Origin: a virus
Virus record (IMG/VR): IMGVR_UViG_3300022939_001307
Location: 1 to 35,627 of that record
Reading direction: 5' to 3' (one strand)
DNA length: 35,627 nt
Program-made: the position numbers and the translations under genes
Part shown: positions 12,296 through 31,821 of the stretch, one piece after another
Layout: the number at the start of each line of letters is the position of its first letter
Position numbering within the stretch: the stretch's first letter is position 1
Notes under the pieces: model-generated
What the model was told of the DNA's origin: nothing
Seen by the model: the letters and a program-made list of their open reading frames with translations, nothing else
The model's database searches: none

Positions 12296-12749
12296 TGAAG
12301 ATTGGGGTATCGGCAAAGCCGGTACCCTTCCTTGGACACACAACTCAGCAGACCTGAAATGGTTTAAAGAATGTACAACAGGAGGCGTAGTTGCAATGGG
12401 AAAAGCAACTTGGGACAGCCTACCAAACAAACCATTACCCAACCGAAATAACATTGTCGTTACTAGTAGCACTAATGATTACAATGGCGGCGGATATCAT
12501 TACGTAAAATTTGAAACTGCAAAAACAGAACTTGTTAACATGAATCGTTTACAAGATGTTTGGATTATTGGCGGTGCGCAACTGGTTGATGGTTTACTAC
12601 ATATTATTGACGAGATATGGTTAAGTCGTATTTCAGGTACATATGACTGTGACACATTTCTCCCACGCAATATTATTGAAACAACTTACAGTTTGTATAG
12701 TAGTCAACGTGAAGGTGATGTATACGTTGACAAATGGAGACAGAATTGA
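12270..12749 (+). CDS. folA: dihydrofolate reductase
   Basis: 159 residues, normal length for DHFR. Reduces dihydrofolate with NADPH to supply tetrahydrofolate. Seen: WGIGKAGTLPW at 12-22, catalytic Asp28 in ADLKWF, GKATW at 44-48 and the NADPH-binding IIGGAQL at 99-105. It pairs with thymidylate synthase 0.8 kb downstream, the usual phage dTMP-synthesis set: ThyA produces dihydrofolate that this enzyme recycles. Overlaps its upstream and downstream neighbours. Confidence 0.93.
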   Translation: MIRAILACDEDWGIGKAGTLPWTHNSADLKWFKECTTGGVVAMGKATWDSLPNKPLPNRNNIVVTSSTNDYNGGGYHYVKFETAKTELVNMNRLQDVWIIGGAQLVDGLLHIIDEIWLSRISGTYDCDTFLPRNIIETTYSLYSSQREGDVYVDKWRQN

Positions 12750-13171
12750 AAATATTAATATTCGGACTTCCGGGTAGTGGTAAAAGTACTCTAGCAAAAC
12801 CGTTTGCAGAGTTAATTGGCGGCGTTTGGCTTAATGCAGATGCAGTTAGAGCTCAATATGAAGATTGGGACTTTAGCATACAAGGAAGAAAGAGACAAGC
12901 ACAACGAATGCGTCATTTAGCAGACGGTGTTGTAATGGCAGGTAAAGTTGCTGTAGCTGATTTTATTTGTCCAATGAAAGATGCACGTGAAGATTTTGGA
13001 GCAGATTTTACTGTGTGGATGGACACTATCGAAGAAGGTATATATGATGATACAAATGCACTTTTTCAGCCTCCTGAAAAAGTCGACTATCATGTTAAAG
13101 AATGGTTTACTGACACACATGAACAACTAATGCCTGTTGTACAACGTTGGATGGAGCGCAACAATGTTTAA
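12734..13171 (+). CDS. P-loop kinase, adenylylsulfate-kinase-like
   Basis: 145 residues. Walker A GLPGSGKST at 11-19. The sequence after it (LNADAVRAQYEDWDFSIQGR, later VADFICPMKDAR) closely follows the order of motifs in APS kinases (D-x-VR, then ADF.CP...R). APS kinase makes PAPS from adenylylsulfate and ATP. Phage homologs are sometimes annotated so without proof, and another small-molecule or nucleotide kinase is possible. Starts inside DHFR and overlaps the nucleotidyltransferase gene by eight bases. Confidence 0.75.
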   Translation: METELKILIFGLPGSGKSTLAKPFAELIGGVWLNADAVRAQYEDWDFSIQGRKRQAQRMRHLADGVVMAGKVAVADFICPMKDAREDFGADFTVWMDTIEEGIYDDTNALFQPPEKVDYHVKEWFTDTHEQLMPVVQRWMERNNV

Positions 13172-13568: not shown

Positions 13569-14431
13569 AGCAGTATTTAGATGCGTTACAATACATATTT
13601 GATAATGGAGAAGAAGTTACAGATCGTACCGGAGTAGGCACAAAGAGCGTGTTTGGGTACCAAATGCGCTTTAATTTACAAGACGGCTTTCCTGCTGTTA
13701 CTACTAAACGTCTAGCGTGGAAGAGTGTTGTGGGCGAACTGATATGGTTCTTAGAAGGAAGTACAGACGAGCGTAGACTAGCTGAAGTTACATATGGAAA
13801 GTCACGTAACGAACTAGTAGACAAAACAACTATTTGGACTGCTAATGCCGACAAGCAAGGTGTAGACTTAGGATACATTAACACTGAACTAACAAAACAC
13901 CTAGGTCCTGTTTATGGTGCGCAATGGCGTAACTTCAATGGCGAACATCCAAAGTGCGATCAGATCAGTAATATTATTAATGAAATTAAAAATAATCCAG
14001 ACAGTAGACGTATTATACTAAGTGCATGGAATCCATTACAAATTGAACAAATGGCACTGCCTCCTTGTCATACTATGGCACAGTTTAGAGTAATGAATGG
14101 TAAACTAAATTGTCAACTGTATCAACGTAGTGCAGATATGTTCTTAGGTGTACCATTTAACATTGCAAGTTACAGTCTACTAACACATATGCTAGCACAC
14201 ATTTGCGAACTAAAAGCTGGAGAGTTTGTTTGGACAGGCGGCGACTGTCACATTTATATGAATCACTTAGAACAAGTACAAGAGCAACTAACAAGAGACG
14301 AACGCAAATTACCTTACTTGTTTATGCCTCCGTTCTGTGATTTAGAAACACTACTAAATTCAAAAGTATCAGATTATAAACTAATAGGTTATGATCCGAT
14401 GCCTAGTATTAAAGCACCAATGGCAGTATAA
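13565..14431 (+). CDS. thyA: thymidylate synthase
   Basis: 288 residues, TTG start overlapping the upstream stop (TTGA), with GAGAAGAGGG upstream. Methylates dUMP to dTMP with methylenetetrahydrofolate. Catalytic Cys168 lies in LPPCHT. The dUMP-binding and folate regions RRIILSAWNP (149-157) and QRSADMFLGVPFNIASY (187-203) are present, and the C-terminus ends in IKAPMAV, the expected closing tail. About 24 residues longer than E. coli ThyA because of a segment near 78-105. Confidence 0.95.
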   Translation: MKQYLDALQYIFDNGEEVTDRTGVGTKSVFGYQMRFNLQDGFPAVTTKRLAWKSVVGELIWFLEGSTDERRLAEVTYGKSRNELVDKTTIWTANADKQGVDLGYINTELTKHLGPVYGAQWRNFNGEHPKCDQISNIINEIKNNPDSRRIILSAWNPLQIEQMALPPCHTMAQFRVMNGKLNCQLYQRSADMFLGVPFNIASYSLLTHMLAHICELKAGEFVWTGGDCHIYMNHLEQVQEQLTRDERKLPYLFMPPFCDLETLLNSKVSDYKLIGYDPMPSIKAPMAV

Positions 14432-14432
14432 C

Positions 14433-15926
14433 ATGAATCCTTTTTACACACTTATTCCTGACGACAAACCTGCACTTAGTGATATCAATGAAACTATCAC
14501 ATACAGAGAATTAATTAGTCGTGCAATTGAAAAACGTGACTGGCTTGTAAGCATGGGCTACAAGCATGGACACAGAATTGGCATTGCAGGCAAAAACGAT
14601 GTCAGAACGTATGTTTATTATCTTGCAGGACAAATGTTAAGTAGTGTAGTTGGTTTGCGTAGTGATTTTAAAGGCAATGACTGGAATTATAAAATACCTG
14701 CAGCAAATATTAATGTAGTACTTGAGCTAGGTGAAAACGACGACGATCTAAAAGTGCATCATCAAAATTTTGATAAGTCAACAGAGTGTTACAAAGAATA
14801 TGCTGTTTATTTTAGTAGCGGTACAACCAGTAACAAATGGGGATCTCCACAAGCAACACCAATGGTATGGGACGTAGATGACTTTAATTGGGGCATGGGT
14901 GCAGATATTGTAAACTACAACAGAGAAGTTATTAATCCTTACTATAGAGAAAGTGATGAAAACATTCAAATACAGCCTATGCACGCCTGGATGGGTTGGG
15001 GGCAAGAGTGTACAACATTAAATCTCATTAAGCATGGACATACAATTCTTGTAGGCGACATTACTGAATGGGACGAACTTGTAGAACGTTTTAAACCAAC
15101 ATGGACTGTAATGTTTCCAATGATTGCATTTAAACTTATGGATAAGAATAAAGGAGGCGGGCACCCAATCAAATGTGTTGAAATGTCAGGTGCCCGTGTT
15201 ACTGAAAAACAAGTTGAGCAAATGCGTGAGTTTTTTAACTGCGGATACTTTGTAAGCCACTATGGTACAAGCCAAAGTGGAAACTTTATGCACAACTCAG
15301 GAGACGGAAGTAATTTGCAAAACATTGGAAAGCCATGTGAAGGATTTATTCATGCATATGGTAAAGATTTTGTACGTATTGGAAAACACGGAACACTTGA
15401 AGTTAAATGGCATGGCAGTCCGCCTCACTACACAAATGAAGAAGGATATTACGATACCAATGATGTAGTTGAATTAGGTGAAGACGGTAATTATATTTTC
15501 AAAGGTCGTGCAAATGAAATGCTTATGATACGTGGTGGAAGTAAATTACAAGCACCAAGTATTGAAGACAGAATACTAGAAAACTTTGGAATAAAAGAAG
15601 CATATGTATTTCCAATTCCAGAAAGTGATGTCAATATTGAAACTGATCAAGCAGACACTCGTGTAAAAATAACACGTGAAGAAATTGATAGCGGTATATT
15701 ATATCAATTACCAGGTCTGTTATATTATGGTGACATGACAACTGAAGAAATGCATGAATGGTGCGAAGAAAATTTACCATTGTATCATCGTCCAGTACAC
15801 ATTTACAGATTAAAAGATACTCTTAGCTCATTTACAGAGTCTGAAGTTTGGAAAGTTAGAAGATTAGCAATGCACGACACACTAACTGAAAACTATCAGG
15901 AGTGGTGTGATGACTGGCAACTATAA
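14433..15926 (+). CDS. ANL-superfamily acyl-adenylate-forming enzyme
   Basis: 497 residues from ATG 14433, two bases after the thyA stop. Adenylates a carboxylate with ATP. Motifs: phosphate loop SSGTTSNKWGSPQ at 128-140, A5-like HYGTSQSG at 276-283 (the usual TE is TS here), YYDTND at 339-344 with hinge GRANEMLMIRGG at 358-369, and a C-terminal WKVRR holding the likely catalytic Lys near 475. Both N- and C-terminal subdomains are present, so it can probably do adenylation and perhaps transfer to CoA or a carrier. No carrier protein is visible nearby. Substrate unknown; relatively distant from textbook family members. Confidence 0.82.
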   Translation: MNPFYTLIPDDKPALSDINETITYRELISRAIEKRDWLVSMGYKHGHRIGIAGKNDVRTYVYYLAGQMLSSVVGLRSDFKGNDWNYKIPAANINVVLELGENDDDLKVHHQNFDKSTECYKEYAVYFSSGTTSNKWGSPQATPMVWDVDDFNWGMGADIVNYNREVINPYYRESDENIQIQPMHAWMGWGQECTTLNLIKHGHTILVGDITEWDELVERFKPTWTVMFPMIAFKLMDKNKGGGHPIKCVEMSGARVTEKQVEQMREFFNCGYFVSHYGTSQSGNFMHNSGDGSNLQNIGKPCEGFIHAYGKDFVRIGKHGTLEVKWHGSPPHYTNEEGYYDTNDVVELGEDGNYIFKGRANEMLMIRGGSKLQAPSIEDRILENFGIKEAYVFPIPESDVNIETDQADTRVKITREEIDSGILYQLPGLLYYGDMTTEEMHEWCEENLPLYHRPVHIYRLKDTLSSFTESEVWKVRRLAMHDTLTENYQEWCDDWQL

Positions 15927-16712: not shown

Positions 16713-17216
16713 ATGATAAAATTAGATTTACAATATGATATCGATAAGATAAGAAATGAACTTGAAATTTTAGTCCAAGAATATATCTATTATTATGATC
16801 TAATAGGACAGGTATTAATTCAGTCTCCAAACGGAGACAATTGGACAGATATTAGAGCACCGTATAAAATACATCCTGATCTCAGAGAATGGGATTTTAA
16901 AAAACCAAATACACCAGACGATTGGGAAATGACACGTTTTATGTTAGAAACTGGTGTGTGTAGAACACGTATATTAAAACTTGAACCAAGACAATGTTAT
17001 ACATGGCATCATGATGTTGGACACAGAATACACTTGGCAGTTAATACACACGAGTCTTGTTTTTTTATTGAAGATGGAAAAATGCTACACATTCCATCAG
17101 ATGGTTATCCATATAAAGTAGATGTAAACAACTATCATACTGCACTTAATGGATCTAATGATGTTGTAAGGACACACTTAGTAGGAGTTATTAGAGATGA
17201 AGCAATGGAATGTTGA
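16713..17216 (+). CDS. 2OG-Fe(II) oxygenase-like (Asp/Asn hydroxylase type)
   Basis: 167 residues. The jelly-roll core has WHHDVGHRIHLAVNT with HxD at 99-101, then a strand CFFIEDGKMLHIP, distal His142 in NNYHTALN and Arg153 in VVRTHLVG. This is the iron and 2-oxoglutarate arrangement of the aspartyl/asparaginyl beta-hydroxylase-like group. It likely hydroxylates a peptide or small molecule using O2 and 2-oxoglutarate. It is followed, with overlap, by the split radical SAM pair. Confidence 0.75.
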   Translation: MIKLDLQYDIDKIRNELEILVQEYIYYYDLIGQVLIQSPNGDNWTDIRAPYKIHPDLREWDFKKPNTPDDWEMTRFMLETGVCRTRILKLEPRQCYTWHHDVGHRIHLAVNTHESCFFIEDGKMLHIPSDGYPYKVDVNNYHTALNGSNDVVRTHLVGVIRDEAMEC

Positions 17217-17472
17217 AATAAATCCTAAATGTGAACACGGTAATGAGCTTTTTGTTACAGCAAAAGGAAAGGTACGTCCTTGTTTTTGGATCAGTGAACG
17301 TAGCGAAGAAAAAGAAATATTTGATAGTGATGACAATTTTAACATTAACAAAACACCATTAAATGAAATAGTAGACGTACATTTAAAAAAATTTACAGAT
17401 GATGTACGAAAAGATCCATACAATGCACTAAAGGTTTGTTTTTATGAATGCTCCGTCAAAAATAAAGATTGA
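17197..17472 (+). CDS. stand-alone SPASM-like cysteine module
   Basis: 91 residues. Cys12 (KCEHG), Cys29 in RPCF, then Cys81 and Cys85 in VCFYEC. This pattern, an N-terminal Cys, a xxPCF pair and a C-terminal CxxxC, is the same as the N-terminal Fe-S-binding part of the 32527-33702 radical SAM protein, where it precedes the core. Here it is a separate gene that overlaps the core-encoding gene by 29 bases, so the two products probably form one enzyme. It starts inside the oxygenase gene after a GTAGGAG. Function inferred. Confidence 0.65.
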   Translation: MKQWNVEINPKCEHGNELFVTAKGKVRPCFWISERSEEKEIFDSDDNFNINKTPLNEIVDVHLKKFTDDVRKDPYNALKVCFYECSVKNKD

Positions 17473-18052
17473 ACTAACATCTAAATGCACATGTGCTTGT
17501 TTTAAATGTCCACGTACAATACTAAAAGGATTGTATGATGAACTAGAAATATCAGTCGACAACGTTAAAAAAGTTCTCGACATGAACCCTAAAAGAATAT
17601 ATTTTATGGGTAACTTGGGAGATCCAATATATCATACAAGGTTTCCTGAGATCATAAGTATGACAAACGAATACAATATACCGTTTAATGTACATACTGT
17701 TGGATCTGGTTACGATGAGAATTGGTGGCGTGATGTATATAATGCATATGACAATGATCAAAGTAACTGGGTGTTTACACTAGATGGTCTTAAATCCACA
17801 GCAGGTAAATATAGAGTCGGATTAGTATACGATGAAACATTTAATGCTATGCGTTTAGGTGCTAAATTAGGTAAAAATATAATGTGGCAGTTTATTGTAC
17901 TTAGACATAATCAACACGATATTACAGAGGCTAAAAGATTAGCAGATGAACACGGAATTAACTTACGTATTGACTTCAATGAACGTTGGGACGGGAACGA
18001 CGATCCGTGGAAGCCAACAATATCTAAAAAAGATATTGACATAGTACAATAG
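17444..18052 (+). CDS. radical SAM core protein, short
   Basis: 202 residues. SAM-cluster motif C15-x3-C19-x2-C22 within SKCTCACFKCPR, followed by a GNLGDPIYH segment replacing the usual GGEP, and later TLDGLKS and QFIVLRHNQHDITEAKRLA. Only about five strands of the barrel seem present and there is no auxiliary-cluster tail. That supports partnership with the preceding Cys module. Neighbouring 2OG oxygenase and SAM synthetase suggest a modification pathway. Substrate unknown. Confidence 0.8.
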   Translation: MNAPSKIKIELTSKCTCACFKCPRTILKGLYDELEISVDNVKKVLDMNPKRIYFMGNLGDPIYHTRFPEIISMTNEYNIPFNVHTVGSGYDENWWRDVYNAYDNDQSNWVFTLDGLKSTAGKYRVGLVYDETFNAMRLGAKLGKNIMWQFIVLRHNQHDITEAKRLADEHGINLRIDFNERWDGNDDPWKPTISKKDIDIVQ

Positions 18053-18063
18053 AGTGCTATAAT
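18036..18063 (+). promoter_or_regulatory. near-consensus sigma70 promoter
   Basis: TTGACA at 18036-18041, 16-base spacer, TATAAT at 18058-18063: both hexamers are perfect consensus. It lies 32 bases before ATG 18096 with AAGGAAAAAAC as ribosome-binding region and overlaps the end of the radical SAM gene. Suggests strong early expression of the transporter genes by host polymerase. Confidence 0.8.
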
Positions 18064-18095
18064 GAAATCATGTAAATTTACATAAAGGAAAAAAC

Positions 18096-19091
18096 ATGAA
18101 GAAAACTTTGACTACTTTTGCTGCATTAGCAGCTACATTAGGTTTCGTCAACACAGCTAGCGCAAGCGAGTGTGGCGACATTACAATGGCAGGTCTCGGT
18201 TGGGGATCTGCAAGTATCTTGGGAGAAATTGACAAACTAGTACTTGAAGAAGGTATGGGTTGTTCAGTAACAATGATCCCAGGCGGCACAGTTCCTTCGT
18301 TTACATCAATGGTTGAGCAAAGCCAACCAGATGTAATGGGCGAGCTATGGCCAAATGCAGCAGGTATTGATTTGTATAATGCTGCACTAGCTGATGGTCG
18401 GATGACAGAATCAGCAGAGCAATCACCAATTGGTGGTGTTGCAGAAGGTTGGTATATCCTACCAAACATTTTGGAAGAGCACCCAGAACTAACTACACTA
18501 GAAGCAGTTCTTGCTCGTCCGGATCTTTTTCCACATCCAGATGATCCTAGCAAGGGAGGTTTTGTAACATGTCCTCCAGGCTCAGGTTGTCAGATCTCAA
18601 ATGCTAACTTGTTTGTTGCAAATGACATGGAAGCAAAAGGTTGGAAAATGATCGAACCAGGTTCATATGCAGCAGAAGATGCAACAATCACTCGTGCATA
18701 TGATCGTGGAGAAGCATGGTTTGGTTACTATAGTGCACCAACTGCGTTTATTGGTAAGTACGACCTACGTCAGCTAGACTGGGGAGTAGACTTTGCAGGA
18801 CAAGAAAACTGGAATTGTATTACAAAGCCAGATTGTCCAAATCCACAACCGTCAAGCTGGACATCATCTTTTGTACGTACTGTATTCACAGATGAGTTTG
18901 CAGCAAGTGGTAGTGCAGATGTGCAAGGTTATTTTGCTGCACGTGTTGTGCCGGGTCCAGTAATGAACGCATTGTTGTTGTACATGGACGATAATCAAGC
19001 AGCACCAGATGAAGTAGCAGAATACTTTGTAGAAAACTACGACATTTGGAAAGATTGGGTTTCAGCAGACGTAGCAGCAAAACTACAGTAA
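18096..19091 (+). CDS. glycine-betaine/choline-type ABC substrate-binding protein (ProX/OpuAC)
   Basis: 331 residues. Signal peptide with KK, a hydrophobic core and an ASA site after residue 23, giving a mature periplasmic protein. The body has the OpuAC/ProX order: LGWGSASILGEIDKLVLEEG, VTMIPGGTVPSFTSMVEQ, a DVMGELWPNAAG pocket segment, GGVAEGWYILP, and a C-terminal VVPGPVMNALLLYMDDN and AEYFVENYDIW. Binds a quaternary amine or similar osmolyte for import. Strong sigma70 promoter upstream; the permease gene starts three bases after its stop. Rare for a phage; probably acquired from a marine host. Ligand specificity is inferred. Confidence 0.88.
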   Translation: MKKTLTTFAALAATLGFVNTASASECGDITMAGLGWGSASILGEIDKLVLEEGMGCSVTMIPGGTVPSFTSMVEQSQPDVMGELWPNAAGIDLYNAALADGRMTESAEQSPIGGVAEGWYILPNILEEHPELTTLEAVLARPDLFPHPDDPSKGGFVTCPPGSGCQISNANLFVANDMEAKGWKMIEPGSYAAEDATITRAYDRGEAWFGYYSAPTAFIGKYDLRQLDWGVDFAGQENWNCITKPDCPNPQPSSWTSSFVRTVFTDEFAASGSADVQGYFAARVVPGPVMNALLLYMDDNQAAPDEVAEYFVENYDIWKDWVSADVAAKLQ

Positions 19092-19094
19092 CCC

Positions 19095-19946
19095 ATGATT
19101 GACCTCTTCGAGTTTCCAGAGCTTAGTCGAAGCGTCATACGTACTATTAAAAAGTCGATTGACAATTCGTTTAGAGAATTCTCTCGTAGCTATGGAGACT
19201 CGATTGAGGTTTTCTTTTACCCGCTAAAGGTTCTTATGAACTGGGTAGAGTTTGCACTCGTTAGTGCACCATGGCCCTTAGCAATGTTTATACTTGCTGG
19301 GGCTGTTTTTTATCTTACTAGAAACAAAAAGCTCTGTGCATGGACTGTAGTGTACATGATTTTTATTGGGGCTTTTGGTTTGTGGGAAGATACAATGTAC
19401 ACACTTAGCCTTGTGCTTGTGTCTGCACTTTTAAGTGTAGTAATAGGTATACCGATTGGTATTTGGATGTCTAGAAAAGATCGTGTACAAAACTTTATAA
19501 ATCCAATACTAGATGTTATGCAAACTATTCCTATCTTTGTTTATTTGATTCCAGTCGTTATGCTACTAGGATTAGGTAAAATACCAGGCGTAATTGCAAT
19601 GACTATCTATGCTGTTCCTCCAATTATACGTTTAACTAACTTAGGCTTACGTCAAGTAGGTATAGGTATGATAGAAGCAGCACTAAGTATGGGCATGAAG
19701 AAGTGGCAAATATTATGGACAATTGAGTTACCGTTGTCAATGAAAAGTATACTTACAGGCACTAACCAAACTATTATGATGGCTATATCTATGGTTGTTA
19801 TTGCTAGTATGATTGGTGTACAAGGATTGGGTGTAAGTGTATTACAAGCTGTACAAAACCAATATATAGGCAGTGGCATTATTAGTGGTACTGCAATTGT
19901 AGGACTTGCAATTATATTAGATAGAGTGGTACAAAATGCAAAATAA
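19095..19946 (+). CDS. betaine-type ABC permease (ProW/OpuAB-like)
   Basis: 283 residues with multiple membrane segments from about residue 60 and the coupling loop EAALSMGMKKWQILWTIELP (194-213), which contacts the ATPase. The rest matches ProW-like permeases (ILDVMQTIPIFVYLIP, VPPIIRLTNLG, GVQGLGVSVLQAVQ). No ATPase (ProV-like) gene follows or occurs in the window, so it may use a host ATPase. The 3' end runs into the start of a methyltransferase gene with an 11-base overlap; the C-terminus stops soon after the last helix. Confidence 0.88.
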   Translation: MIDLFEFPELSRSVIRTIKKSIDNSFREFSRSYGDSIEVFFYPLKVLMNWVEFALVSAPWPLAMFILAGAVFYLTRNKKLCAWTVVYMIFIGAFGLWEDTMYTLSLVLVSALLSVVIGIPIGIWMSRKDRVQNFINPILDVMQTIPIFVYLIPVVMLLGLGKIPGVIAMTIYAVPPIIRLTNLGLRQVGIGMIEAALSMGMKKWQILWTIELPLSMKSILTGTNQTIMMAISMVVIASMIGVQGLGVSVLQAVQNQYIGSGIISGTAIVGLAIILDRVVQNAK

Positions 19947-20565
19947 AACATTTGATTTGGTACGTCGATTGATAACGTACAAGAACAAAAGAACATTTGG
20001 TACGTCGATTGATAACATACAAGAACAAAAGAACATTTACGAAAACTTAGATTTTACAAACGAAGTGGTTTATAAGCAAGGATGGATTGGTTATTCAAAA
20101 ACAGCAGCCTATGTAATTTACAATTTTGAAAAACATATATCAGTAGCGGACATTGGATGTGGTACAGGATTCACTGGAGCTCTTTTAAAACTATCTGGAT
20201 TTGAATCAGTTGACGGTTATGATATTGTAGAAAAATATATTGAAACATCAAAAAAATATTATAATAAAACAGCGTATTGTAATATATTAGAGTCTACTTT
20301 GCCACGCAAATACGATGTAATAATGGCAAGTGGTTTATTTAACTTTTATTGTTTAAGTGCAAAGCCTGCAAAAAATATATACAATAGTTTAAACGACAAT
20401 GGAATTTTTATCATGGTGAATCCAGCAGATCCATCTTATTTAAAAGATCACGGATGGCTAGATCAAAGTTATTTCTCAACTTTATCATCAAGTGATCCGT
20501 TTATAGGACGTAAAACAGATAACACAACCTATAGGTATGTGACAAACATAATGAAAAAGATGTAA
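19936..20565 (+). CDS. SAM-dependent methyltransferase
   Basis: 209 residues. Class I motif ADIGCGTGF at 71-79, then GYDIVEKYI and VIMASGLFNF, typical of small-molecule methyltransferases. The N-terminal ~35 residues derive from a 40-base tandem duplication whose second copy is read in a different frame, so the natural N-terminus may be later. Overlaps the permease gene by 11 bases. Substrate unknown; sits beside the aldo/keto reductase and the tailoring cluster. Confidence 0.8.
   Translation: MQNKTFDLVRRLITYKNKRTFGTSIDNIQEQKNIYENLDFTNEVVYKQGWIGYSKTAAYVIYNFEKHISVADIGCGTGFTGALLKLSGFESVDGYDIVEKYIETSKKYYNKTAYCNILESTLPRKYDVIMASGLFNFYCLSAKPAKNIYNSLNDNGIFIMVNPADPSYLKDHGWLDQSYFSTLSSSDPFIGRKTDNTTYRYVTNIMKKM
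19956..20035 (+). repeat. 40-bp tandem duplication
   Basis: Bases 19956-19995 and 19996-20035 are direct copies (TTTGGTACGTCGATTGATAA, then a GTACAAGAACAAAAGAACA tail) with a single difference, G at 19977 versus A in the second copy. A third start (TTTA) follows. Forty is not a multiple of three, so the duplicate shifts the reading frame inside the methyltransferase N-terminus. Confidence 0.9.
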
Positions 20566-20566: not shown

Positions 20567-21517
20567 ATGCAAAATAAAATCTGTGTTGGAACAATGCTTT
20601 GGGGATCAAGAACTGATGCACATGAAGCACACAATATTATTAATACTGCACTAGACAACGGTATTGACTTTTTTGATACTGCACAGAAGTATCCTACTTT
20701 TCCGTACAGCGAATGGACACATGGTGTAAGTGAACTAATACTAGGAGATTGGATACGTGCTAACGGTAAAAAATTACGTGTTAGTACTAAGTTAAAAAGT
20801 CCAATAATACCAGAAGACATATCAGAATATGTAGACAATAGTTTGCTACGTTTAGGTATAGATTGTATTGATTATTGTCATTTGCATTGGCCTAGCAGAC
20901 CACATTATCATTTTAGAAAAGTTTGGATGTATGATCCTACTGAAACAGACACGCAAGAAACACTTGATCATTTTGATCAATGTAGTGAAGTTTTAAATAA
21001 TTTACAGTGTCAAGGAAAGATAAAACACATATGTATGAGCAATGAAACTGCTTGGGGTATTACACAGTGGGCGCAACGTCTAAATTTAGATTATGTGCAG
21101 CAAGAATATAGTTTGCTACATAGACTATTTGAATTAGATGTAGCAGAAGCATGTCATCACAATAACATAAAACTACTTGCTTGGTCTCCACTTGCTGGTG
21201 GATTACTAACAGGCAAGTATACAGATACAATTACTCCAGAAAACAGTAGAAGATCATACGGTGGACTAGGACCACGTGATAATGTAAATGTCTGGGAACC
21301 TATTAGAAGATACAAAAACATAGCACAAGATGCTAGTATAACACTAACACAAATGAGTATTGCCTGGGTAATGAGTAGTCCATTATTAGAAGCTATAATA
21401 CTAGGCGTAACTAACGCTCAACAATTAGAAGAAAATATTTCAACAATTGTAAAATTAGATGAAGAAACACTGTTTAGAATAAGACATGTTTATCAAGACC
21501 ATCCGTTACCATTTTAA
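20567..21517 (+). CDS. aldo/keto reductase
   Basis: 316 residues, TIM-barrel NAD(P)H oxidoreductase. Catalytic tetrad in place: Asp37 and Tyr42 in DFFDTAQKYP, Lys in VSTKLK (about 75), and His107 in YCHLHWP. NADP-site segment SMAWVM-like is seen as SIAWVMSSP, with ILGVTNAQQLEEN near the end. It reduces an aldehyde or keto group; similar enzymes occur in nucleotide-sugar and O-antigen pathways. The start shares AAATGCAAAATAAAA with the start of the methyltransferase gene. Ends tail-to-tail with the minus-strand cluster. Confidence 0.88.
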   Translation: MQNKICVGTMLWGSRTDAHEAHNIINTALDNGIDFFDTAQKYPTFPYSEWTHGVSELILGDWIRANGKKLRVSTKLKSPIIPEDISEYVDNSLLRLGIDCIDYCHLHWPSRPHYHFRKVWMYDPTETDTQETLDHFDQCSEVLNNLQCQGKIKHICMSNETAWGITQWAQRLNLDYVQQEYSLLHRLFELDVAEACHHNNIKLLAWSPLAGGLLTGKYTDTITPENSRRSYGGLGPRDNVNVWEPIRRYKNIAQDASITLTQMSIAWVMSSPLLEAIILGVTNAQQLEENISTIVKLDEETLFRIRHVYQDHPLPF

Positions 21518-21930: not shown

Positions 21931-22609
21931 GTTTAAATAAATCCTCTTGGCTGTCTGTATGTAGTGCAATAAAAAATTGATATCCAATTTCATCATCAAC
22001 TGTGCGAGCAGCATGTATAATACTAGTATCAATTACATATAATCTGCCTGGCTCGACTAATTCAGGAGGATAATCAACAATATCAGGATCCATACTAGGA
22101 ACCATGGCAGGCAATTCACATCTTCTTTGCTCTCTGTCAAATTGTATACGTGCCAAATCTGGATTATTTGTTCCCCATAATCGTAATATTGGACTGGGAA
22201 ACCAAGTATCCACATGTGGAAAGAAAGCAGTTTCTTGATCCCAACGTAATATACAACTGCGAAGCATATATTGTTTTAAATCGTTTAACGGATCAAAACA
22301 AGATTCGTCTAGCACGGGTGTGGGCACAGTAAAGTCTCTGTCGTATACAGGATCTTCAATTAGATCTCCATTGGGCCTATTCCATTCATCCAGTGGGTAA
22401 CATGTTATTTCTGGATTATTGTACAGGCTACCATTTTCGTTTACTAGTGGCAATCCATAACGTGGCATGTGCTGTTTTTTTCTACCCCAACTTCTAAATG
22501 CATAATGATATTTGGTCATAGTTTCTTCAAACTTGTCTACATCAATTATAATGTCTGTGGGTTGCATTACTACTGGATGTAGTGCTGCATATTCATTTAA
22601 TCCAAGCAT
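21920..22609 (-). CDS. 2OG-Fe(II) oxygenase-like protein, 229 aa
   Basis: HVD at 132-134 in FFPHVDTWFPSP, distal His199 in DTSIIHAARTVDDE, followed by a strand GYQFFIALH. These fit a 2-oxoglutarate dioxygenase metal site, though the 2OG-binding Arg is uncertain (Arg202 is a candidate). The N-terminal half is proline-rich and unrecognised. It starts inside the end of the mini-adenylation gene by 17 bases, suggesting joint translation. Confidence 0.65.
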   Translation of the reverse strand: MLGLNEYAALHPVVMQPTDIIIDVDKFEETMTKYHYAFRSWGRKKQHMPRYGLPLVNENGSLYNNPEITCYPLDEWNRPNGDLIEDPVYDRDFTVPTPVLDESCFDPLNDLKQYMLRSCILRWDQETAFFPHVDTWFPSPILRLWGTNNPDLARIQFDREQRRCELPAMVPSMDPDIVDYPPELVEPGRLYVIDTSIIHAARTVDDEIGYQFFIALHTDSQEDLFKHVL

Positions 22610-23291
22610 TGTTCCTTCCCATATAATATAAATCTCGATCTGCTATTTGTACAATATCACCAGTTGGAAACCAATCATTATATACACATATGTCTCCATG
22701 AACATATAATTCGTTTTCAACAAATTTAATATCACAATAACATGTATCTCCCATGATACTTTCTGTATTGTTTATAATGTCACCGGGCTTATAAGTTTTA
22801 TTAATAGCAACAGGACCTACTTCAGTCATACCCCAATTAGCAATAAAGGTAGCACCACGATCAACAAATGCTTGTATTATTGTACTAGTAACTCTATCGC
22901 TACCACACATAATAATTATGCCAGACAAGTTTAAGTCTTGGAACCCTTTTGTTTTCATTACTGCACGTGCCATGTCTGGAGTTAAGTGACTGTGTGTAAA
23001 GTCTGTAATTTGTCTAACCCAAGCAAAAGCATTAAAGCCCTGTACCTCAACATGAGCGTCTACTTCAATTGCAGGCAAGGTTTGTGCTAGTAATCCTCCT
23101 GCATGTTTAAGAGAACATACAGTTAATATTCTACTAGTACGAGTAATGTCTTGCACTTCTCTTGCAACACTATTTGCAGCAAGTAATTTATGTACAGGTT
23201 GTTTAATACGTTTAGGCGTTCCTGTGCTACCACTTGTACTAAGAACAGTACCTGACCTAAGTATCTCTTTTAAATGTTCGTTCAGTTCCAT
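22593..23291 (-). CDS. miniature ANL adenylation protein
   Basis: 232 residues, far shorter than the usual 400-550. Begins almost at the phosphate loop (STSGSTGTPK, 18-27), then NWGMTEVGP, FPTGDIVQ and a final YMGRNNAWIK, where the protein ends. Both the N-terminal region and the C-terminal mobile domain are absent. The core looks MenE/AMP-ligase-like and the start has no frameshift. It might adenylate but not finish the transfer, or need a partner. The full-length ANL protein lies at 14433-15926. Overlaps neighbours on both sides. Confidence 0.75.
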   Translation of the reverse strand: MELNEHLKEILRSGTVLSTSGSTGTPKRIKQPVHKLLAANSVAREVQDITRTSRILTVCSLKHAGGLLAQTLPAIEVDAHVEVQGFNAFAWVRQITDFTHSHLTPDMARAVMKTKGFQDLNLSGIIIMCGSDRVTSTIIQAFVDRGATFIANWGMTEVGPVAINKTYKPGDIINNTESIMGDTCYCDIKFVENELYVHGDICVYNDWFPTGDIVQIADRDLYYMGRNNAWIK

Positions 23292-23966: not shown

Positions 23967-24242
23967 TCAAATAGTTTCTGTTGTTGTATCCAAAATAGTA
24001 TGTCCGTTTAATCCAGAACCGCCTGGTAGTGCTTCTAATTCAGCGAAGTATGTATTAGCCGCAGTTTCATCTTCAAATATAACTTCATTTTTAAAAATAA
24101 GTGGATCATCAGTTAAACGCACATTTCCTTCTATTACTTTACCTGCTGCCAAATACTCATTCCAAAGAGCTTCGGCTGCTGAAGTTTGTGTTGACACATC
24201 TGTAGATGTTTTTTGAATAGTAAATGTTACTTTATAAGCCAT
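23967..24242 (-). CDS. unknown 91-residue protein with own late-promoter-like element
   Basis: Excellent GAGGAG ribosome-binding site six bases before the ATG and ATAAATAC just upstream, both inside the end of the radical SAM gene. Acidic alpha/beta sequence: MAYKVTFTIQKTSTDVSTQT, then AAEALWNEYLAAGKVI, a strand KNEVIFEDE and helix TYFAELEALPGG, ending in a short polar tail. The LPGG followed by a polar tail could be a double-glycine leader, but a small ferredoxin-like fold is at least as likely. Confidence 0.7.
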   Translation of the reverse strand: MAYKVTFTIQKTSTDVSTQTSAAEALWNEYLAAGKVIEGNVRLTDDPLIFKNEVIFEDETAANTYFAELEALPGGSGLNGHTILDTTTETI

Positions 24243-25374
24243 CTTTTTCTCCTCGTACAGTATTTATTTTACGCTTGGGTATCTTACTGTCAGCACTGCT
24301 TACACATGCCGGTGTCATACAAACACGTGGTCCATCAAATAGTTTAAATCCTGTTTCTATATTTCCAATTGGAGCATCATAACAAGAATAGGAACGTTTG
24401 ACGCTTCCATCAGGCTCTCTAATAATAATTCCTTGAAACCCACTGTTACAACTCCATCCTTTAAAGTTATTAAAGTTAAATGCATTAAAACGTTCTGCCT
24501 GATCCATGTACCATTTTTTGCCATCACTGTCAGTGAACTCTACTTGCATGTGCCAGGGCACACTTTTATCGTTTTCACCTATTGTGTAAGGCGGCAGTTC
24601 GAAACTAGGCCTTGGACGATCTGCCCACTTTCGCTTTTGCTCAGTATATGCCATTTGCGGCATACCGTTCCACAATCGCTGTAGCATTTCTTCTGTATAA
24701 CCGTCCACGACTCTTGACGCCGTTGGGTCGGATTGGGGTTTGAGGGTAACGTTGATTCCTTGTTCGTGGAAGAAAAGAGCATTTTCCCAATCTTTTTCAA
24801 ACCATTCGGGAACCATGACCATGTTGATTGTAATTTGTACATCGTGCTCCTGACATAATATAAGTTTGTCTGCAAAGTCTTGCATTTTGTCACGTGTATT
24901 TAAGTGTTCTGTGTGTAAACTTGCTGTAATACTAGCTCTATGGAAAGGTTTTGCACGTTCTACGTATTCCTTAAACCAACTCATTGGTCTGGAACAGTTT
25001 GATGTCATGTGTATACTAGTATAATTAGTGTTATCAACATCACTGGCAAGATGCTGTAAAATATCCAAGTAACCAGGGTGGAAAGTAGGTTCCCCACCGC
25101 TGAGACTAAAGTGGAAACTATTAAATCCATTTTCACGTGCTTGCCTCTTTATTTCATCAATGGTGATAAGACATAGTTCTGTAGGTCTATGATCTTTTTT
25201 GTCGCTACGAGCGTATGGCCAACAATAACTGCAACGATAATTGCAAAACCTGCCAAGAAGCCAACTAACAGTAAAAAGGTCTCTATAGAGGAGAGTACGT
25301 TGTCCAACTTGGACAATATCTTCATAGGGAATTTTAGTGAAATCATACTCACTCCATTTTAAATCTTCAGTCAT
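24232..25374 (-). CDS. radical SAM enzyme with C-terminal Cys-rich region
   Basis: 380 residues. C44-x3-C48-x2-C51 in RFCNYRCSYC and GGEP at 93-96. The C-terminal part holds a SPASM-like set: WSCNSGF, SYSCYD, then VCMTPAC, enough for at least one further Fe-S cluster. Such enzymes make thioether or carbon-carbon links, epimerise or modify sugars or peptides. Target unknown. It ends inside the start of the 24242 gene. Confidence 0.87.
   Translation of the reverse strand: MTEDLKWSEYDFTKIPYEDIVQVGQRTLLYRDLFTVSWLLGRFCNYRCSYCWPYARSDKKDHRPTELCLITIDEIKRQARENGFNSFHFSLSGGEPTFHPGYLDILQHLASDVDNTNYTSIHMTSNCSRPMSWFKEYVERAKPFHRASITASLHTEHLNTRDKMQDFADKLILCQEHDVQITINMVMVPEWFEKDWENALFFHEQGINVTLKPQSDPTASRVVDGYTEEMLQRLWNGMPQMAYTEQKRKWADRPRPSFELPPYTIGENDKSVPWHMQVEFTDSDGKKWYMDQAERFNAFNFNNFKGWSCNSGFQGIIIREPDGSVKRSYSCYDAPIGNIETGFKLFDGPRVCMTPACVSSADSKIPKRKINTVRGEKDGL
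24260..24267 (-). promoter_or_regulatory. late-promoter-like ATAAATAC element
   Basis: Minus-strand ATAAATAC, then TGTACGAGGAGAAAAAG and the ATG of the 24242 gene. It lies within the coding sequence of the preceding radical SAM gene. Gives the small protein its own transcription start, suggesting that it is made in excess over the enzymes around it. Confidence 0.6.
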
Positions 25375-25378
25375 GATA

Positions 25379-26131
25379 TTACTCTAACACAATTTTCCAT
25401 AAATTGTCAATCTTTTTTGCAATTGGCATGTCATTAATAGTAATGCAATTGTCTTTAAGACAAAATTTTCTCGTTGTCGTTATATCACGTGGATGATGAA
25501 AACTAAAGTCATTAGTAGTAGGTATCATGTAAGTACTTATTTGTTTAATTTGCACATCAACATCTGTTGCATCGGCATATGTAGGGCAATGCCCAGTCCA
25601 TGTCCAATCTTCATGTAGTTCATGCATACCGTCACTAAAGTCAAAATAATAATCCTCTACTTCCCAAAACTTAATATTAGGAAATCTTTTACGAACATTG
25701 TTGTTGTAATCGGTAATACAAATGTCTACTGGTTTATTGTATACATCAGCTAATATCAATCTAGTAGCACCAGGATGTATAGGAATTTTACCGTTTTTAA
25801 AAAGACTTAATGTTATTGGACTGTAAAAATTTTTACCGTTTTTTATATCATTTAACATAAGATATATACTATTCATTTTTCCAATTGGACTTTGATGTAT
25901 ATCCAAGTCATCTTGAGTAAACTCAGTTTTAATACTAAAAGCACGGTCTACCCATTTTTGAATTTGATAATCAATGTCCCACCAACTATCTTCTCCTAGT
26001 ATTTTTTCAAATATGTCAAACATTGTAAGTTTAGTCCATACAGTTTTTGTACCAACACGCCGGTCAAAATCATTACTTAACTCAACAAATTGTTCATAAC
26101 TTGTTAATTTAGATTGTTTTGGAAAGTTCAT
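25379..26131 (-). CDS. unknown 250-residue protein
   Basis: No recognised motif. Notable are KIPIHPGATRLILADVYN, which recalls the HPG.TR...A part of ParB/Srx-like nucleotide-binding folds, and a late Trp/His-rich segment (DGMHELHEDWTWTGHCP). Possible enzyme of the cluster, but the function cannot be stated. Overlaps the SGNH gene by 23 bases and is followed after four bases by the radical SAM gene. Confidence 0.65.
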   Translation of the reverse strand: MNFPKQSKLTSYEQFVELSNDFDRRVGTKTVWTKLTMFDIFEKILGEDSWWDIDYQIQKWVDRAFSIKTEFTQDDLDIHQSPIGKMNSIYLMLNDIKNGKNFYSPITLSLFKNGKIPIHPGATRLILADVYNKPVDICITDYNNNVRKRFPNIKFWEVEDYYFDFSDGMHELHEDWTWTGHCPTYADATDVDVQIKQISTYMIPTTNDFSFHHPRDITTTRKFCLKDNCITINDMPIAKKIDNLWKIVLE

Positions 26132-26867
26132 TTGTTAAATATTCTCCATATACTACATGCAAATCTTCATGCAAGTGACCACCAGGATATCTGTAAGGAT
26201 CTATACCATTTTCTGGATCGTTAACATGTTGTTCAGTTAGTTGATAAAAACTTAGTGGTATGTCTAATTCTATATCTTTTTCTAAAACACTTATATCATC
26301 ATTTACAGTTTTAAGTGTATAGCAACGTGGATGTAAACTTTTGGCTAGTTGAATATAACCATGCGTTTGTAGTCGAAAACAAACTTCATGCGGACCTACA
26401 TCCCATAAAACTTCAGCTTGGTGCTCTGGTAGCCAATGTATTTGATGATTGGTTGCTGTTATGTCATTTGCAGGAATGAATCTTAAAGGAGTTACAATAC
26501 TAAACAAAACAATATCTTCAGGTTGATATTGATCACAATCTTGATACATTTTATAGATACTTAAACTATTACTACTTCCTGGTTCAGCACGACTTATTAA
26601 ATCTGCACCTAGCCTATCCGCTAATATACCAGCATAGCTTAATCCTGGCATACACTGACTTTTTATATGCTTATACCATTTTTGTTTTATTGTTTTATTA
26701 TATTTGTCTATACCCAAGCGATTTCTACATACATTTCGTACAGTTGTATTAGGATCATCACTGTACCATCCCTCGCTTGCAAACCAACTTGCACCCAAGT
26801 CGTGTGTATAACTAGTACCTAGCTCATGTCCTGCTGCATGGCTATCTCCATAACTCCAAATTTTCAT
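26109..26867 (-). CDS. SGNH/GDSL hydrolase-like protein
   Basis: 252 residues. The first strand ends in YGDSHAAG (G7 D8 S9), the block I of SGNH hydrolases with the nucleophilic Ser. A LADRLGADLISRAEPGSSN segment may be block II/III, and GGHLHEDLHVVYGEYL near the C-terminus can supply the catalytic His. These enzymes cleave or transfer acyl groups, often on sugars. It may remove or add acyl groups in the pathway. Overlaps the KdsB-like gene (ATGA). Confidence 0.7.
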   Translation of the reverse strand: MKIWSYGDSHAAGHELGTSYTHDLGASWFASEGWYSDDPNTTVRNVCRNRLGIDKYNKTIKQKWYKHIKSQCMPGLSYAGILADRLGADLISRAEPGSSNSLSIYKMYQDCDQYQPEDIVLFSIVTPLRFIPANDITATNHQIHWLPEHQAEVLWDVGPHEVCFRLQTHGYIQLAKSLHPRCYTLKTVNDDISVLEKDIELDIPLSFYQLTEQHVNDPENGIDPYRYPGGHLHEDLHVVYGEYLTNELSKTI

Positions 26868-27538
26868 TTATTAACAGACCTCCACAATTCTAAATCACGT
26901 GGCACATTTATTTCTATACCATCAAACTCACATTGAACGCCACGTAGTTCATCACCATTTTGTATCCAACGTAATCCTTCTATAGTTTCTGCAATTTCAG
27001 CTGGATAGCGAGTAAATGTTCTCCAACGTTCTGCAGCTTCTTGAGTGTATCCATGGAAGCCTAGTGCAAACTCGCCATATGCTAATTCACTTCTGCAAAA
27101 CCAATGCACACGGTTATTGGTCATAACCATTTTGCATACAGTTGGGTCACTACGTCCTTCCGGTGTCATTGTCTTATACGCTTGATATACATAATGATCG
27201 TCAAGTGCACGTTCAATAGCTTGCACAGGTTCTATAGTTGCATCAGGATTGTCACCTTGTACGTTAATATATTTGTCGTAATCAAGTTCTCGTCCTATTA
27301 CACTAATACAACGGTCAGTGCCGTCGGTACAGTCTGGTGAAGTTATAACAATATTGCTTGTTGGTATTACTGAATTTAATTGATCAGTATCTGTTAGTAC
27401 AACTGTATCATAACCCATGGCTTCGCATCGGTCAAAAACTCGTCGTATCATGGGCTTGCCATTTAGGTCAGCTAGGCCCTTGTTTGGAAATCTTGTACTT
27501 TTTAATCTAACTGGAATTAGAATAACTGTTGACATCAT
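26864..27538 (-). CDS. kdsB: CMP-Kdo synthetase-like cytidylyltransferase
   Basis: 224 residues, a little under the ~245 of KdsB. The first motif ILIPVRLKSTRFPNKGLADL is nearly canonical for activation of 3-deoxy-sugar acids with CTP, with GRSD and GFHGYTQEAAE regions also KdsB-like. The NVQGDEP motif appears as NVQGDNP (92-98), so the conserved Glu is Asn97. Asp96 for Mg is kept. It probably makes a CMP-activated acidic sugar for surface polysaccharide or a related sugar. Overlaps both neighbours by four bases. Confidence 0.88.
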   Translation of the reverse strand: MMSTVILIPVRLKSTRFPNKGLADLNGKPMIRRVFDRCEAMGYDTVVLTDTDQLNSVIPTSNIVITSPDCTDGTDRCISVIGRELDYDKYINVQGDNPDATIEPVQAIERALDDHYVYQAYKTMTPEGRSDPTVCKMVMTNNRVHWFCRSELAYGEFALGFHGYTQEAAERWRTFTRYPAEIAETIEGLRWIQNGDELRGVQCEFDGIEINVPRDLELWRSVNK

Positions 27539-28095
27539 TTATACCATTTTTTATTTGCTAACAACAAATTGATTGTTGTTCTTGGTTCTGTAAATGTTGC
27601 AGGATGATCAAAGTCGTGCCAATTAATTTCATTTGGAATAGCACAATACCCAGTGTTAATTTTCCATGGGACAACTTTAACTGGCTTTTCACCTGCTTCG
27701 CCCGATCTATAAAGTTTTGTTCCGTTCCCTTGACCATCTATGTATAGCACAGTAACAAATTGTTTCCATGGACTATCAGTATGCGGATGACTATGATTAA
27801 ACCCCGGTTCAAGTTTTTTTACTTCAATCCTAAAAAAGCTGTCTGATTCAGAACATGTCAGTATATTGTTTCTTTCTTGTGTTGTAATTTTATCTAGACT
27901 GGGATATACTTTGTCAAAAATCTCCCATGCTTTGTCTTGCAATAACTCCCAGACTGGACAATCTGCAAATAACCATAAACTTTCATTGTTGTTTAAACTA
28001 CGTGTATACTCTGCAATAGAGCTTATCTCACTATCTGTAAAAATATTGCTTATAGTTGCATGTGGGTTAGGATTGTTACTATATATAATATTCAT
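27535..28095 (-). CDS. 2OG-Fe(II) oxygenase (prolyl-hydroxylase-like)
   Basis: 186 residues. HxD at 105-107 in HPHTDSPWKQ, a strand GTKLYRSG, distal His160 or 164 (NWHDFDHP) and Arg172 in EPRTTINL for 2OG. Follows the layout of small 2OG dioxygenases that hydroxylate peptides or sugars. Coupled by ATGA to the radical SAM gene upstream and to the KdsB-like gene downstream. Confidence 0.78.
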   Translation of the reverse strand: MNIIYSNNPNPHATISNIFTDSEISSIAEYTRSLNNNESLWLFADCPVWELLQDKAWEIFDKVYPSLDKITTQERNNILTCSESDSFFRIEVKKLEPGFNHSHPHTDSPWKQFVTVLYIDGQGNGTKLYRSGEAGEKPVKVVPWKINTGYCAIPNEINWHDFDHPATFTEPRTTINLLLANKKWYK

Positions 28096-29033
28096 TGTGC
28101 TATACCAACGTTATCTACGCCTAACATTCTCCCTCGAGCGGCTTCACTATCGTTACTCCAAACTAGTACTTCAGGATCGTCTATTAGGAAATCACAGTTC
28201 TCACAATAGCTAGGCCAATCTCCCATTTCATGATCTTTGCGAAGTTTATTGTATGCATCGCCATAATATATGTCTTCTAAACTCGTTGTTTCTGCATGTC
28301 CAAGTACACTTAAACTTTCATTTGGTGCACCCATAGTTTGACAACACGGTGTAACAGCACCTTGTAAGCCACCATTACCGCCTGCACGTATTGTAATTTC
28401 TTGTGCAAAGGGTCTACCACAACTACGTTTACGGTTACCATGACGTGTATATTCTGGGTTCCAGTTTCCACTCCAATTATGCATTTTCCATATATAACCA
28501 GTTACTCCGCAATAGTCAATAAAGTTTTTTCTATATTGCTCTATTTCGTGTTCTGTATTATCTGGATCTATAATTAAATGATAGCTTGATATTTCAACGT
28601 TGTCAGGAACATACTCTCGCATTTGTTTTGCATACTCACGTATTTCTTCAAACCTATCCTGGCTCATCCACTTTTTATATAACTCTGGTGTGTACCCTAT
28701 ACAACTAAAACGATACAGTGCAAGTCCAGCATCAACACAGTCTCGCATATAATCGCCATGCATACCACTGCCGTTACTATATATAAAAGGACGAAACCCT
28801 CGTCGTGCAACTGCTTCTATATAACGTGGAAGTTCAGGATCTAGCGTTGGTTCACCGCTGCCTTCTAAGTTGACAACTGGTGTGCCAGTTAATTGATCTA
28901 ATATATTTTCAAATAAGTCAAACGGCATACGTCTTAAAAAACCAGTCTCTCTACCTGGACTAGTTTGAGGACACATTTTACATGTGTAATTACATCCACC
29001 AAATACTTCTATTACTGCTCTTTTAAATTCCAT
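28092..29033 (-). CDS. radical SAM/SPASM enzyme
   Basis: 313 residues from ATG 29033, chosen as the first Met before FKRAVIEVFGGCNYTCKMC; an upstream in-frame start is weaker. SAM-cluster Cys 14, 18 and 21. EGSGEPTLDP replaces GGEP. The C-terminal part has SCGRPF, VTPCCQTM and YCENCDF, a full SPASM-like Cys set, so this is a classical arrangement in contrast to the N-terminal type nearby. Similar proteins act in peptide or sugar modification. Overlaps the SDR gene by 11 bases. Confidence 0.85.
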   Translation of the reverse strand: MEFKRAVIEVFGGCNYTCKMCPQTSPGRETGFLRRMPFDLFENILDQLTGTPVVNLEGSGEPTLDPELPRYIEAVARRGFRPFIYSNGSGMHGDYMRDCVDAGLALYRFSCIGYTPELYKKWMSQDRFEEIREYAKQMREYVPDNVEISSYHLIIDPDNTEHEIEQYRKNFIDYCGVTGYIWKMHNWSGNWNPEYTRHGNRKRSCGRPFAQEITIRAGGNGGLQGAVTPCCQTMGAPNESLSVLGHAETTSLEDIYYGDAYNKLRKDHEMGDWPSYCENCDFLIDDPEVLVWSNDSEAARGRMLGVDNVGIAQ

Positions 29034-31809: not shown

Positions 31810-31813
31810 ATAT

Positions 31814-31821
31814 GTACTTAT
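31814..31821 (-). promoter_or_regulatory. late-promoter-like ATAAGTAC element
   Basis: Minus-strand ATAAGTAC then ATAT and ATG 31809. The same octamer-to-ATG distance is seen at 9124. With the hairpin at 31830 just upstream it would start a new transcript for the 31809 and following genes, nearly without a leader. Confidence 0.45.

What the first reader, a model, noticed from the sequence alone, without database searches (positions are those of the whole stretch)
18036..19946. Betaine-type ABC transporter without ATPase, behind a perfect sigma70 promoter
ProX/OpuAC-like binding protein with signal peptide and ProW-like permease with EAA loop are adjacent; no ProV gene is in the window. The promoter has perfect -35 and -10 boxes. 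Inference: the phage makes periplasmic and membrane parts that dock onto the host ATPase, boosting uptake of osmolytes or methylated amines during infection. A methyl-rich import could also feed methionine and SAM.
Basis: partly seen in the sequence, partly recalled or inferred. Interest (0 to 1): 0.75.

Follow-up and report, generated by a model that had tools for sequence, protein, structure and literature searches.

The report
Phage nutrient-uptake genes with rewired pocket
T4-like bacterial viruses, probably marine, carry the catching protein and sometimes the membrane channel of a betaine-type nutrient pump without its motor, and in every viral copy found the catching protein lacks two pocket residues that the bacterial relatives examined keep, so it may import something else.

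Summary
Window 18096-19091 is an OpuAC-family solute-binding protein (SBP) with a signal-peptide-like start; 19095-19946 is a ProW/ChoW-type permease with the EAA core. A perfect TTGACA-16-TATAAT lies just upstream. The window has no ABC ATPase over the Pfam cut-off. In five Rhodobacterales relatives examined, an ATPase gene follows the permease; here other genes do.

Nine IMG/VR records (all fragments) carry the SBP; none has an ABC ATPase over the cut-off, including 103-kb and 91-kb T4-like ones. Four have the permease; four others have only the SBP. Host parts would have to complete any pump.

The betaine reading is weakened. The closest solved relative is the DMSP-binding DmpX. Among 96 distinct bacterial relatives, 24 columns are at least 98% conserved; the six distinct phage proteins change exactly two of them, both cage tryptophans (W152 to S/A, W202 to S), in every copy. 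The phage SBPs form one clade under purifying selection. The permease also differs around its ATPase-contacting loop.

Most likely these are phage parts that run on host ATPase and import a different or broader ligand. The ligand is untested; a Synechococcus ProX predicted to have two tryptophans still binds glycine betaine.

The parts
18036..18063 (+). sigma70-like promoter TTGACA-16-TATAAT
   Evidence: exact match; near-consensus site at the same place in 5 of 8 related loci, 3 of 5 distinct lineages
18096..19091 (+). OpuAC-family (DmpX-like) solute-binding protein with serine at two cage-tryptophan positions (S163, S213)
   Evidence: PF04069 1.2e-35; PDB 7yle 4e-47; model pLDDT 82.6, VIA Z 30.4 to 7yle; pocket tables
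19095..19946 (+). ProW/ChoW/OpuA-type ABC permease; EAA core kept, surrounding EAA region diverged
   Evidence: PF00528 1e-25; OpuA 7ahc 1.2e-61
17197..17472 (+). SPASM-like 91-aa ORF, upstream neighbour
   Evidence: PF13186 E 0.00096, under the cut-off; sub-cut-off matches at the same place in G002 and G008, none in G006; similar ORFs by eye in L003, L004, L007, L009
17444..18052 (+). radical-SAM-like 202-aa ORF directly upstream of the SBP
   Evidence: phrog_21308 3.9e-13; PF04055 16.9 bits, under the cut-off of 29.5; homologs in G003 (62%) and G006 (44%) also just upstream of the SBP
14391..15926 (+). AMP-binding (acyl/aryl-adenylate) ligase, part of the recurring neighbourhood
   Evidence: PF00501 5.3e-15; 73% in G003, 60% in G006
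16713..17216 (+). beta-hydroxylase-like protein, part of the recurring neighbourhood
   Evidence: PDB 7v4f 2.4e-17 over residues 79-157; 63% in G003, 54% in G006
20567..21517 (+). aldo/keto reductase; directly follows the permease in L002, L003 and L004
   Evidence: PF00248 7.7e-56

Best explanation
A T4-like, probably marine, phage expresses a periplasmic SBP of the betaine/DMSP (DmpX) family and, in one of two SBP lineages, the matching permease; in this window from its own sigma70-type promoter. It carries no motor in the DNA seen: host ATPase, and in SBP-only phages the host permease too, completes the importer. The SBP pocket was rebuilt in the ancestor of the known phage copies, two cage tryptophans giving way to small residues, and held since. 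The phage thereby imports a different or broader set of small cationic or zwitterionic solutes than the host system. Shown: gene families, no ATPase over the cut-off in the records held, one phage clade, the pocket substitutions, purifying selection. Inferred: export to the periplasm, a single rebuilding, assembly with host subunits, transport, change of ligand.
For: SBP and permease families; fold match to DmpX 7yle, Z 30.4 over 292 residues, rmsd 4.2, against 23.6 for the next entry. ABC_tran over the cut-off in 0 of 9 records; permease in 4 of 9. In L013-L017, 5 of 5, an ORF with Walker A and ABC signature follows SBP and permease. Phage SBPs form one clade with support 100. Pocket: W152 in 96 of 96 and W202 in 94 of 94 readable distinct bacterial relatives, against S/A and S in 6 of 6 distinct phage proteins. 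Of 24 columns at least 98% conserved, these two are the only ones changed in any phage protein. Mapped residues W35, T64, W84, E113 and Y200 are kept in 6 of 6. W202 is also W in the five solved SBPs aligned. SBP dN/dS 0.06-0.21 where dS could be computed; Ser213 is kept although written AGT, TCT or TCA. The ten best permease matches in 385 genomes all lie within about 400 bases of an SBP match.
Against: Loss of two tryptophans need not change the ligand: Synechococcus ProX is predicted to have two and binds glycine betaine, and B. subtilis and L. lactis OpuAC have S or A at the W152 column while keeping W at the W202 column. Tested as a group, mapped pocket residues are not significantly over-represented among changed columns (Fisher p 0.09 at 95% and 0.054 at 98% conservation). 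All nine records may be fragments, so an ATPase elsewhere in the virus is possible. One bacterial relative, L018, has SBP and permease but no ATPase next to them, so a separate ATPase gene is not unique to phages. The permease's EAA region diverged, which could weaken pairing with DmpV-type ATPases.
Confidence: 0.5

Rival explanations
1. Ordinary supplement: the SBP still binds betaine, DMSP or choline with a reduced cage and keeps host osmolyte or DMSP uptake running while host expression shuts down, as proposed for cyanophage PstS.
For: Nearest solved relative is the DMSP-binding DmpX; five mapped pocket residues kept; a ProX predicted to have two tryptophans binds glycine betaine; phage PstS precedent.
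Against: The two cage residues are the only ones changed among the 24 most conserved columns, in every phage copy; L183 to E is a third change shared by all six at 95% conservation. Mere supplementation gives no reason to change them.
Confidence: 0.27
2. Interference: a periplasmic decoy SBP, with or without a permease, that competes with host SBP or permease for the importer, shutting down osmolyte uptake or masking a target from other phages.
For: Two cage residues replaced, SBP-only lineage, EAA-region divergence in the permease.
Against: The remaining pocket residues are kept and the gene is under purifying selection, not what a ligand-free decoy needs; some of these phages also carry other uptake genes (TctA, a Na/Pi-cotransporter domain, an SSS-like symporter).
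Confidence: 0.13
3. The virus has its own ATPase in the part not sequenced, so this is a complete phage ABC importer.
For: The records may all be fragments; a full pstSCAB cluster has been reported in one soil viral unit (PMC10987575, passages).
Against: No match over the cut-off in 103 kb and 91 kb; in L013-L017 the ATPase directly follows the permease, while in the window, L002, L003 and L004 other genes do; the 13 viral contigs with a ProV relative are none of the nine.
Confidence: 0.06
4. Recently captured host DNA or a decaying passenger without function.
For: A bacterial origin is likely from the tree.
Against: One clade on a long stem, SBP dN/dS 0.06-0.21, open frames, recurring neighbourhood in distinct phages.
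Confidence: 0.02

Closest known systems
DmpXWV DMSP importer (Ruegeria pomeroyi, Roseovarius nubinhibens; PDB 7yle; PMC10030565, abstract and passages seen)
   Same: SBP fold, 32% identity in the structural alignment; five of the mapped pocket residues; permease beside the SBP.
   Different: Phage SBPs lack W152 and W202; no ATPase gene seen; phage-borne; ligand unknown.
Cyanophage PstS (PMC10976474, passages seen)
   Same: A marine Kyanoviridae phage supplies the periplasmic SBP of an ABC importer.
   Different: Phosphate; that paper argues for repeated uptake and clustering with host genes. Here one phage clade, a phage-specific pocket change, and in one lineage a permease as well.
Phage Pst and Ugp subunits in soil viral units (PMC10987575, passages seen)
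   Same: Transporter subunit genes, permeases included, in phage sequences; one unit has pstSCAB.
   Different: Phosphorus systems; one unit has the ATPase too.
Viral tctA and Bug/TctC-type SBPs (tctA named in a table of PMC6359870, passage seen; BFVD entries)
   Same: Uptake genes of uncultured Caudovirales; L009 itself carries tctA next to this locus.
   Different: Tripartite carboxylate system, ATP-independent (recalled); another SBP family.
OpuA of L. lactis (7ahc, 3l6g/h; PMC2861598, passages seen) and E. coli ProX (1r9l)
   Same: Permease family and SBP family.
   Different: OpuAC uses a three-tryptophan prism; these systems have their own ATPase (recalled).

Membership tests
OpuAC / betaine-type SBP family (PF04069) | Profile match over the curated cut-off | tested here: met
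   123.8 bits against 21.2; 9 of 9 records over the cut-off
OpuAC / betaine-type SBP family (PF04069) | SBP fold of this cluster | tested here: met
   VIA Z 30.4 (rmsd 4.2, 292 aligned) to 7yle; TmoX, ProX, ChoX and OpuAC entries follow
DmpX (DMSP-specific SBP) | All published DMSP-pocket residues (W35, T64, W84, E113, W152, A153, Y200, W202) | tested here: not met
   W152 and W202 replaced in 6 of 6 distinct phage proteins; A153 is G, as in 45 of 96 bacterial relatives
DmpX (DMSP-specific SBP) | Binds DMSP | not testable with these tools
   needs protein
ProW/ChoW-type ABC permease | PF00528 match and EAA loop | tested here: met
   91 bits against 26.4; E194, A195, G200, P213 kept
ProW/ChoW-type ABC permease | NCBIfam equivalog cut-off of ChoW or ProW | tested here: not met
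   245 against 363 and 234 against 439 bits
Complete ABC importer | Own ATPase subunit | tested here: inconclusive
   0 of 9 records over the cut-off, but records may be fragments
T4-like phage | T4-type structural genes | tested here: inconclusive
   No Gp23 in the window. Relative G003 has a baseplate wedge protein (phrog_10646, E 2.8e-253) and G006 has Gp23; 30 of 58 window ORFs match G003 and 8 match G006
Phage-borne SBP uptake gene (PstS-like auxiliary gene) | SBP gene in a phage, acting with host transporter parts | tested here: inconclusive
   gene in phage records shown; action with host parts not testable here

The most novel reading that the evidence does not exclude
The phages have evolved a new import specificity: a betaine-family SBP whose onium cage was dismantled in the phage ancestor now captures another ligand (for instance a bulkier or non-quaternary solute), re-targeting the host pump, and the adjoining recurring genes (AMP-binding ligase, beta-hydroxylase-like, radical-SAM-like and SPASM-like, aldo/keto reductase) process that imported compound.
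Probability: 0.25. Interest if true: 0.82.

Novelty: new variant of a known kind. Interest (0 to 1): 0.6.

Why it matters
Phage uptake genes are often read as host copies that keep host metabolism running. Here a phage clade has changed the very residues that cage the ligand in a family that handles widespread organic solutes of the sea (DMSP, betaines). If the ligand is different, phages re-aim a host pump rather than supplement it. The claim can be tested with one purified protein.

Tried and rejected
Betaine uptake feeding SAM was not adopted: no evidence beyond the family name, and the cage is altered. The 18-bit ABC_tran match at 12734-12961 is under the cut-off and was not counted. Annotated phage genomes: no tblastn match of the SBP at E 1e-5 in 50,697 records. 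The permease matched 29 records there, all under 60% identity, labelled Listeria, Staphylococcus, Enterococcus, Acinetobacter, Salmonella or Bacteriophage sp. and mostly without annotation; none was used as a phage homolog or looked into. A scan of viral contigs with canonical-cage bacterial SBPs gave 42 pattern matches and 0 relatives; its two short peptide patterns make this a weak negative. ProV relatives in viral contigs: 13 loci; the two best (L176, L177) lie at contig ends, GC 0.55, and look by eye like host flanks of prophages; the other 11 were not examined. A first AlphaFold model from phage rows alone failed (mean pLDDT 50.2). No model coordinates were at hand, so whether E194 faces the pocket is unknown. 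The scan of the BFVD viral structures gave only weak matches, the named ones among the best six mostly Bug/TctC-type; that does not exclude relatives. The sampling sites of the IMG/VR records were not looked up; 'marine' rests on kinship to Kyanoviridae phages and marine bacterial relatives.

Full report
What is there. The window is a complete IMG/VR record of 35,627 bases, a virus record that may be a fragment. At 18096-19091 lies a 331-aa protein that matches the OpuAC substrate-binding domain (E 1.2e-35), and at 19095-19946 a 283-aa ABC permease (E 1e-25), related to but below the cut-offs of the ChoW and ProW models. The single-sequence PDB search with the SBP found one entry at E 0.1 or better, 7yle (4e-47), RnDmpX bound to DMSP. 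A structure model from 11 sequences (pLDDT 82.6) matches 7yle at Z 30.4, rmsd 4.2 over 292 residues, with TmoX next at 23.6. Upstream, 18036-18063 is a perfect sigma70-type promoter. Such a pair is expected about 0.12 times in the window, but 5 of 8 related loci (3 of 5 distinct lineages) have a near-consensus site at the same place. L006, L007 and L008, where the SBP starts 12 bases or less after the upstream gene, have none.

Where else it is. Scanning viral contigs gave 8 further loci; a profile scan gave the same 8 contigs. A tblastn of 50,697 annotated phage records found no relative of the SBP at E 1e-5. Of the 9 records, 9 have the SBP, 4 have the permease (window, G001, G002, G003) and 0 have an ABC ATPase over the cut-off, including records of 103 kb (G003) and 91 kb (G006). 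G004 ends inside the SBP. G005-G008 have DNA downstream of the SBP and no permease match in the record. G003 has a T4-type baseplate wedge protein but no Gp23 match; G006 has Gp23. A neighbour protein of L007 matches Phage C48C1, filed under Kyanoviridae, at 63%. Of 58 non-overlapping window ORFs, 30 match G003 proteins at E 1e-8 or better, some only through radical-SAM paralogs, and 8 match G006. These are thus T4-like phages, though I found no structural gene in the window.

Bacterial relatives. In loci L013-L017 (Rhodobacteraceae or Rhodobacterales bins) SBP, permease and an ORF with Walker A and ABC signature follow in a row, 5 of 5 (in L016 the permease ORF is listed short, with masked letters); L018, from a Gammaproteobacteria bin, has SBP and permease but no such ORF beside them. 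In a sample of 385 genomes of the class of G010 (the genome of L014), 59 had an SBP relative at E 1e-20. The ten best permease matches in the same sample all lie within about 400 bases of an SBP match. So both phage genes resemble one operon type, and the ATPase is the missing part.

The pocket. The DmpX paper (outline, abstract and passages seen) lists W35, T64, W84, E113, W152, A153, Y200 and W202; the four tryptophans cage the sulfonium. I mapped these onto 6 distinct phage SBPs and 96 distinct bacterial relatives (108 rows) from five searches (loci came only for the best matches of each, so weaker relatives are not covered). W152 is W in 96 of 96, and W202 in 94 of 94 that reach that column; in the phages they are S/A (4 and 2) and S (6 of 6). 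W35, T64, W84, E113 and Y200 are kept in 6 of 6. Of 24 columns at least 98% conserved in the bacterial set, these two are the only ones changed in any phage protein, and both are changed in all six; of 37 columns at 95%, 3 are changed in all six (the third L183 to E) and 7 in at least one. A Fisher test of all mapped pocket residues against the rest gives p 0.09 at 95% and 0.054 at 98%, so the claim rests on which residues changed, not on a count. By the three records left out of the alignments show the same residues, so 9 of 9 records carry both changes.

Evolution. Phage SBPs are one clade (support 100/100 in 57 rows; 100 in 113 rows) on a stem of 0.68-0.82 changes per column, beside SBPs of the L014 class and one gammaproteobacterial bin. 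The clade splits into a group with the permease (window, L003, L004) and one without (L007, L008, L009). Pairwise dN/dS is 0.06-0.21 for the SBP and 0.06-0.12 for the permease; dS is high or saturated and could not be computed for 4 of 18 pairs. Ser213 is coded AGT in the window and TCT or TCA in others, so the serine seems to have been held.

The permease. It keeps E194, A195, G200 and P213 of the EAA loop, the part that contacts the ATPase in ABC importers (established knowledge). Yet 7 of 17 conserved columns between 185 and 220 differ from the bacterial consensus in all 3 phage proteins, against 4 of 96 outside (p 0.0001; 93 distinct bacterial permeases taken from 101 near-full matches among 107 loci; region chosen afterwards; only three phage sequences, two of them close). 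Pairing with a DmpV-type ATPase is therefore not assured.

Reading. The most likely account is a motor-less phage add-on to host ABC import with an altered ligand pocket. Against a change of ligand: marine Synechococcus ProX, predicted to have two tryptophans, binds glycine betaine (PMC10087775, passages), and two OpuAC proteins have S or A at the W152 column, with W kept at the W202 column. For it: both losses are in every phage copy and in none of the bacterial relatives examined, and W202 is W in the five solved SBPs aligned. The neighbourhood (AMP-binding ligase 14391-15926, a 264-aa protein, beta-hydroxylase-like 16713-17216, radical-SAM-like 17444-18052) recurs in the same order in G003 and, with other genes between, in G006. 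This suggests linked function without saying which.

Known work. Cyanophage PstS is the closest precedent for a phage SBP without its pump (PMC10976474, passages). Viral tctA is known (PMC6359870, table passage). Phage pstS, pstA, pstB and pstC, and one pstSCAB cluster, are reported in soil phages (PMC10987575, passages), so transporter subunits in phages are not new as such. ABC-transporter auxiliary genes as a class are reported in deep-ocean viruses; betaine is not mentioned in that main text (PMC10224230, term search and passages). My searches of the open library found no paper on a betaine-type SBP in phages: 4 of 4 papers listed; 6 of 6; 20 of 84; 15 of 661; 0 found; of these I saw listings, and passages of PMC10224230, PMC7416419, PMC10030565 and PMC10987575 only. 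Subscription papers and preprints are not covered.

Noticed in passing
L009:1747-4228; L007:7-1537; L008:3333-3815; L137:3452-4930: Other uptake genes in the same phages: TctA in L009 (and its C-terminal part in L007, cut by the locus end) followed by a TctC-like ORF (named by eye; no Pfam match), a Na/Pi-cotransporter domain protein after the SBP in L008, and an SSS-like sodium/solute symporter in G003 (TIGR00813 110 bits, under its cut-off of 184).
   Followed up: partly
window 24232-35098, minus strand; L136 and L138 of G003: Dense cluster of radical SAM genes (six with PF04055 over the cut-off in the window, one of them with a B12-binding domain), with a nitroreductase and a KdsB-like cytidylyltransferase; G003 has nine SPASM matches, eight over the cut-off.
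   Followed up: partly
L139:1303-12381 (G003 81303-92381): A single ORF of 3,692 aa on the minus strand next to baseplate genes.
   Followed up: no
window 19936-20565: A methyltransferase-domain ORF sits between permease and aldo/keto reductase here; L002, L003 and L004 lack it at this place. Its start holds two 40-base copies with one difference (19959-20038).
   Followed up: no
window 29670, minus strand: A second perfect TTGACA/TATAAT pair with a spacing in the 15-19 range; 2 in the window against 0.12 expected, 1 of 300 simulations had as many.
   Followed up: no
window 22593-23291 and 14391-15926: Two AMP-binding proteins; the first is only 232 aa and matches positions 170-374 of the 384-position family, with homologs in G003 and G006.
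   Followed up: no
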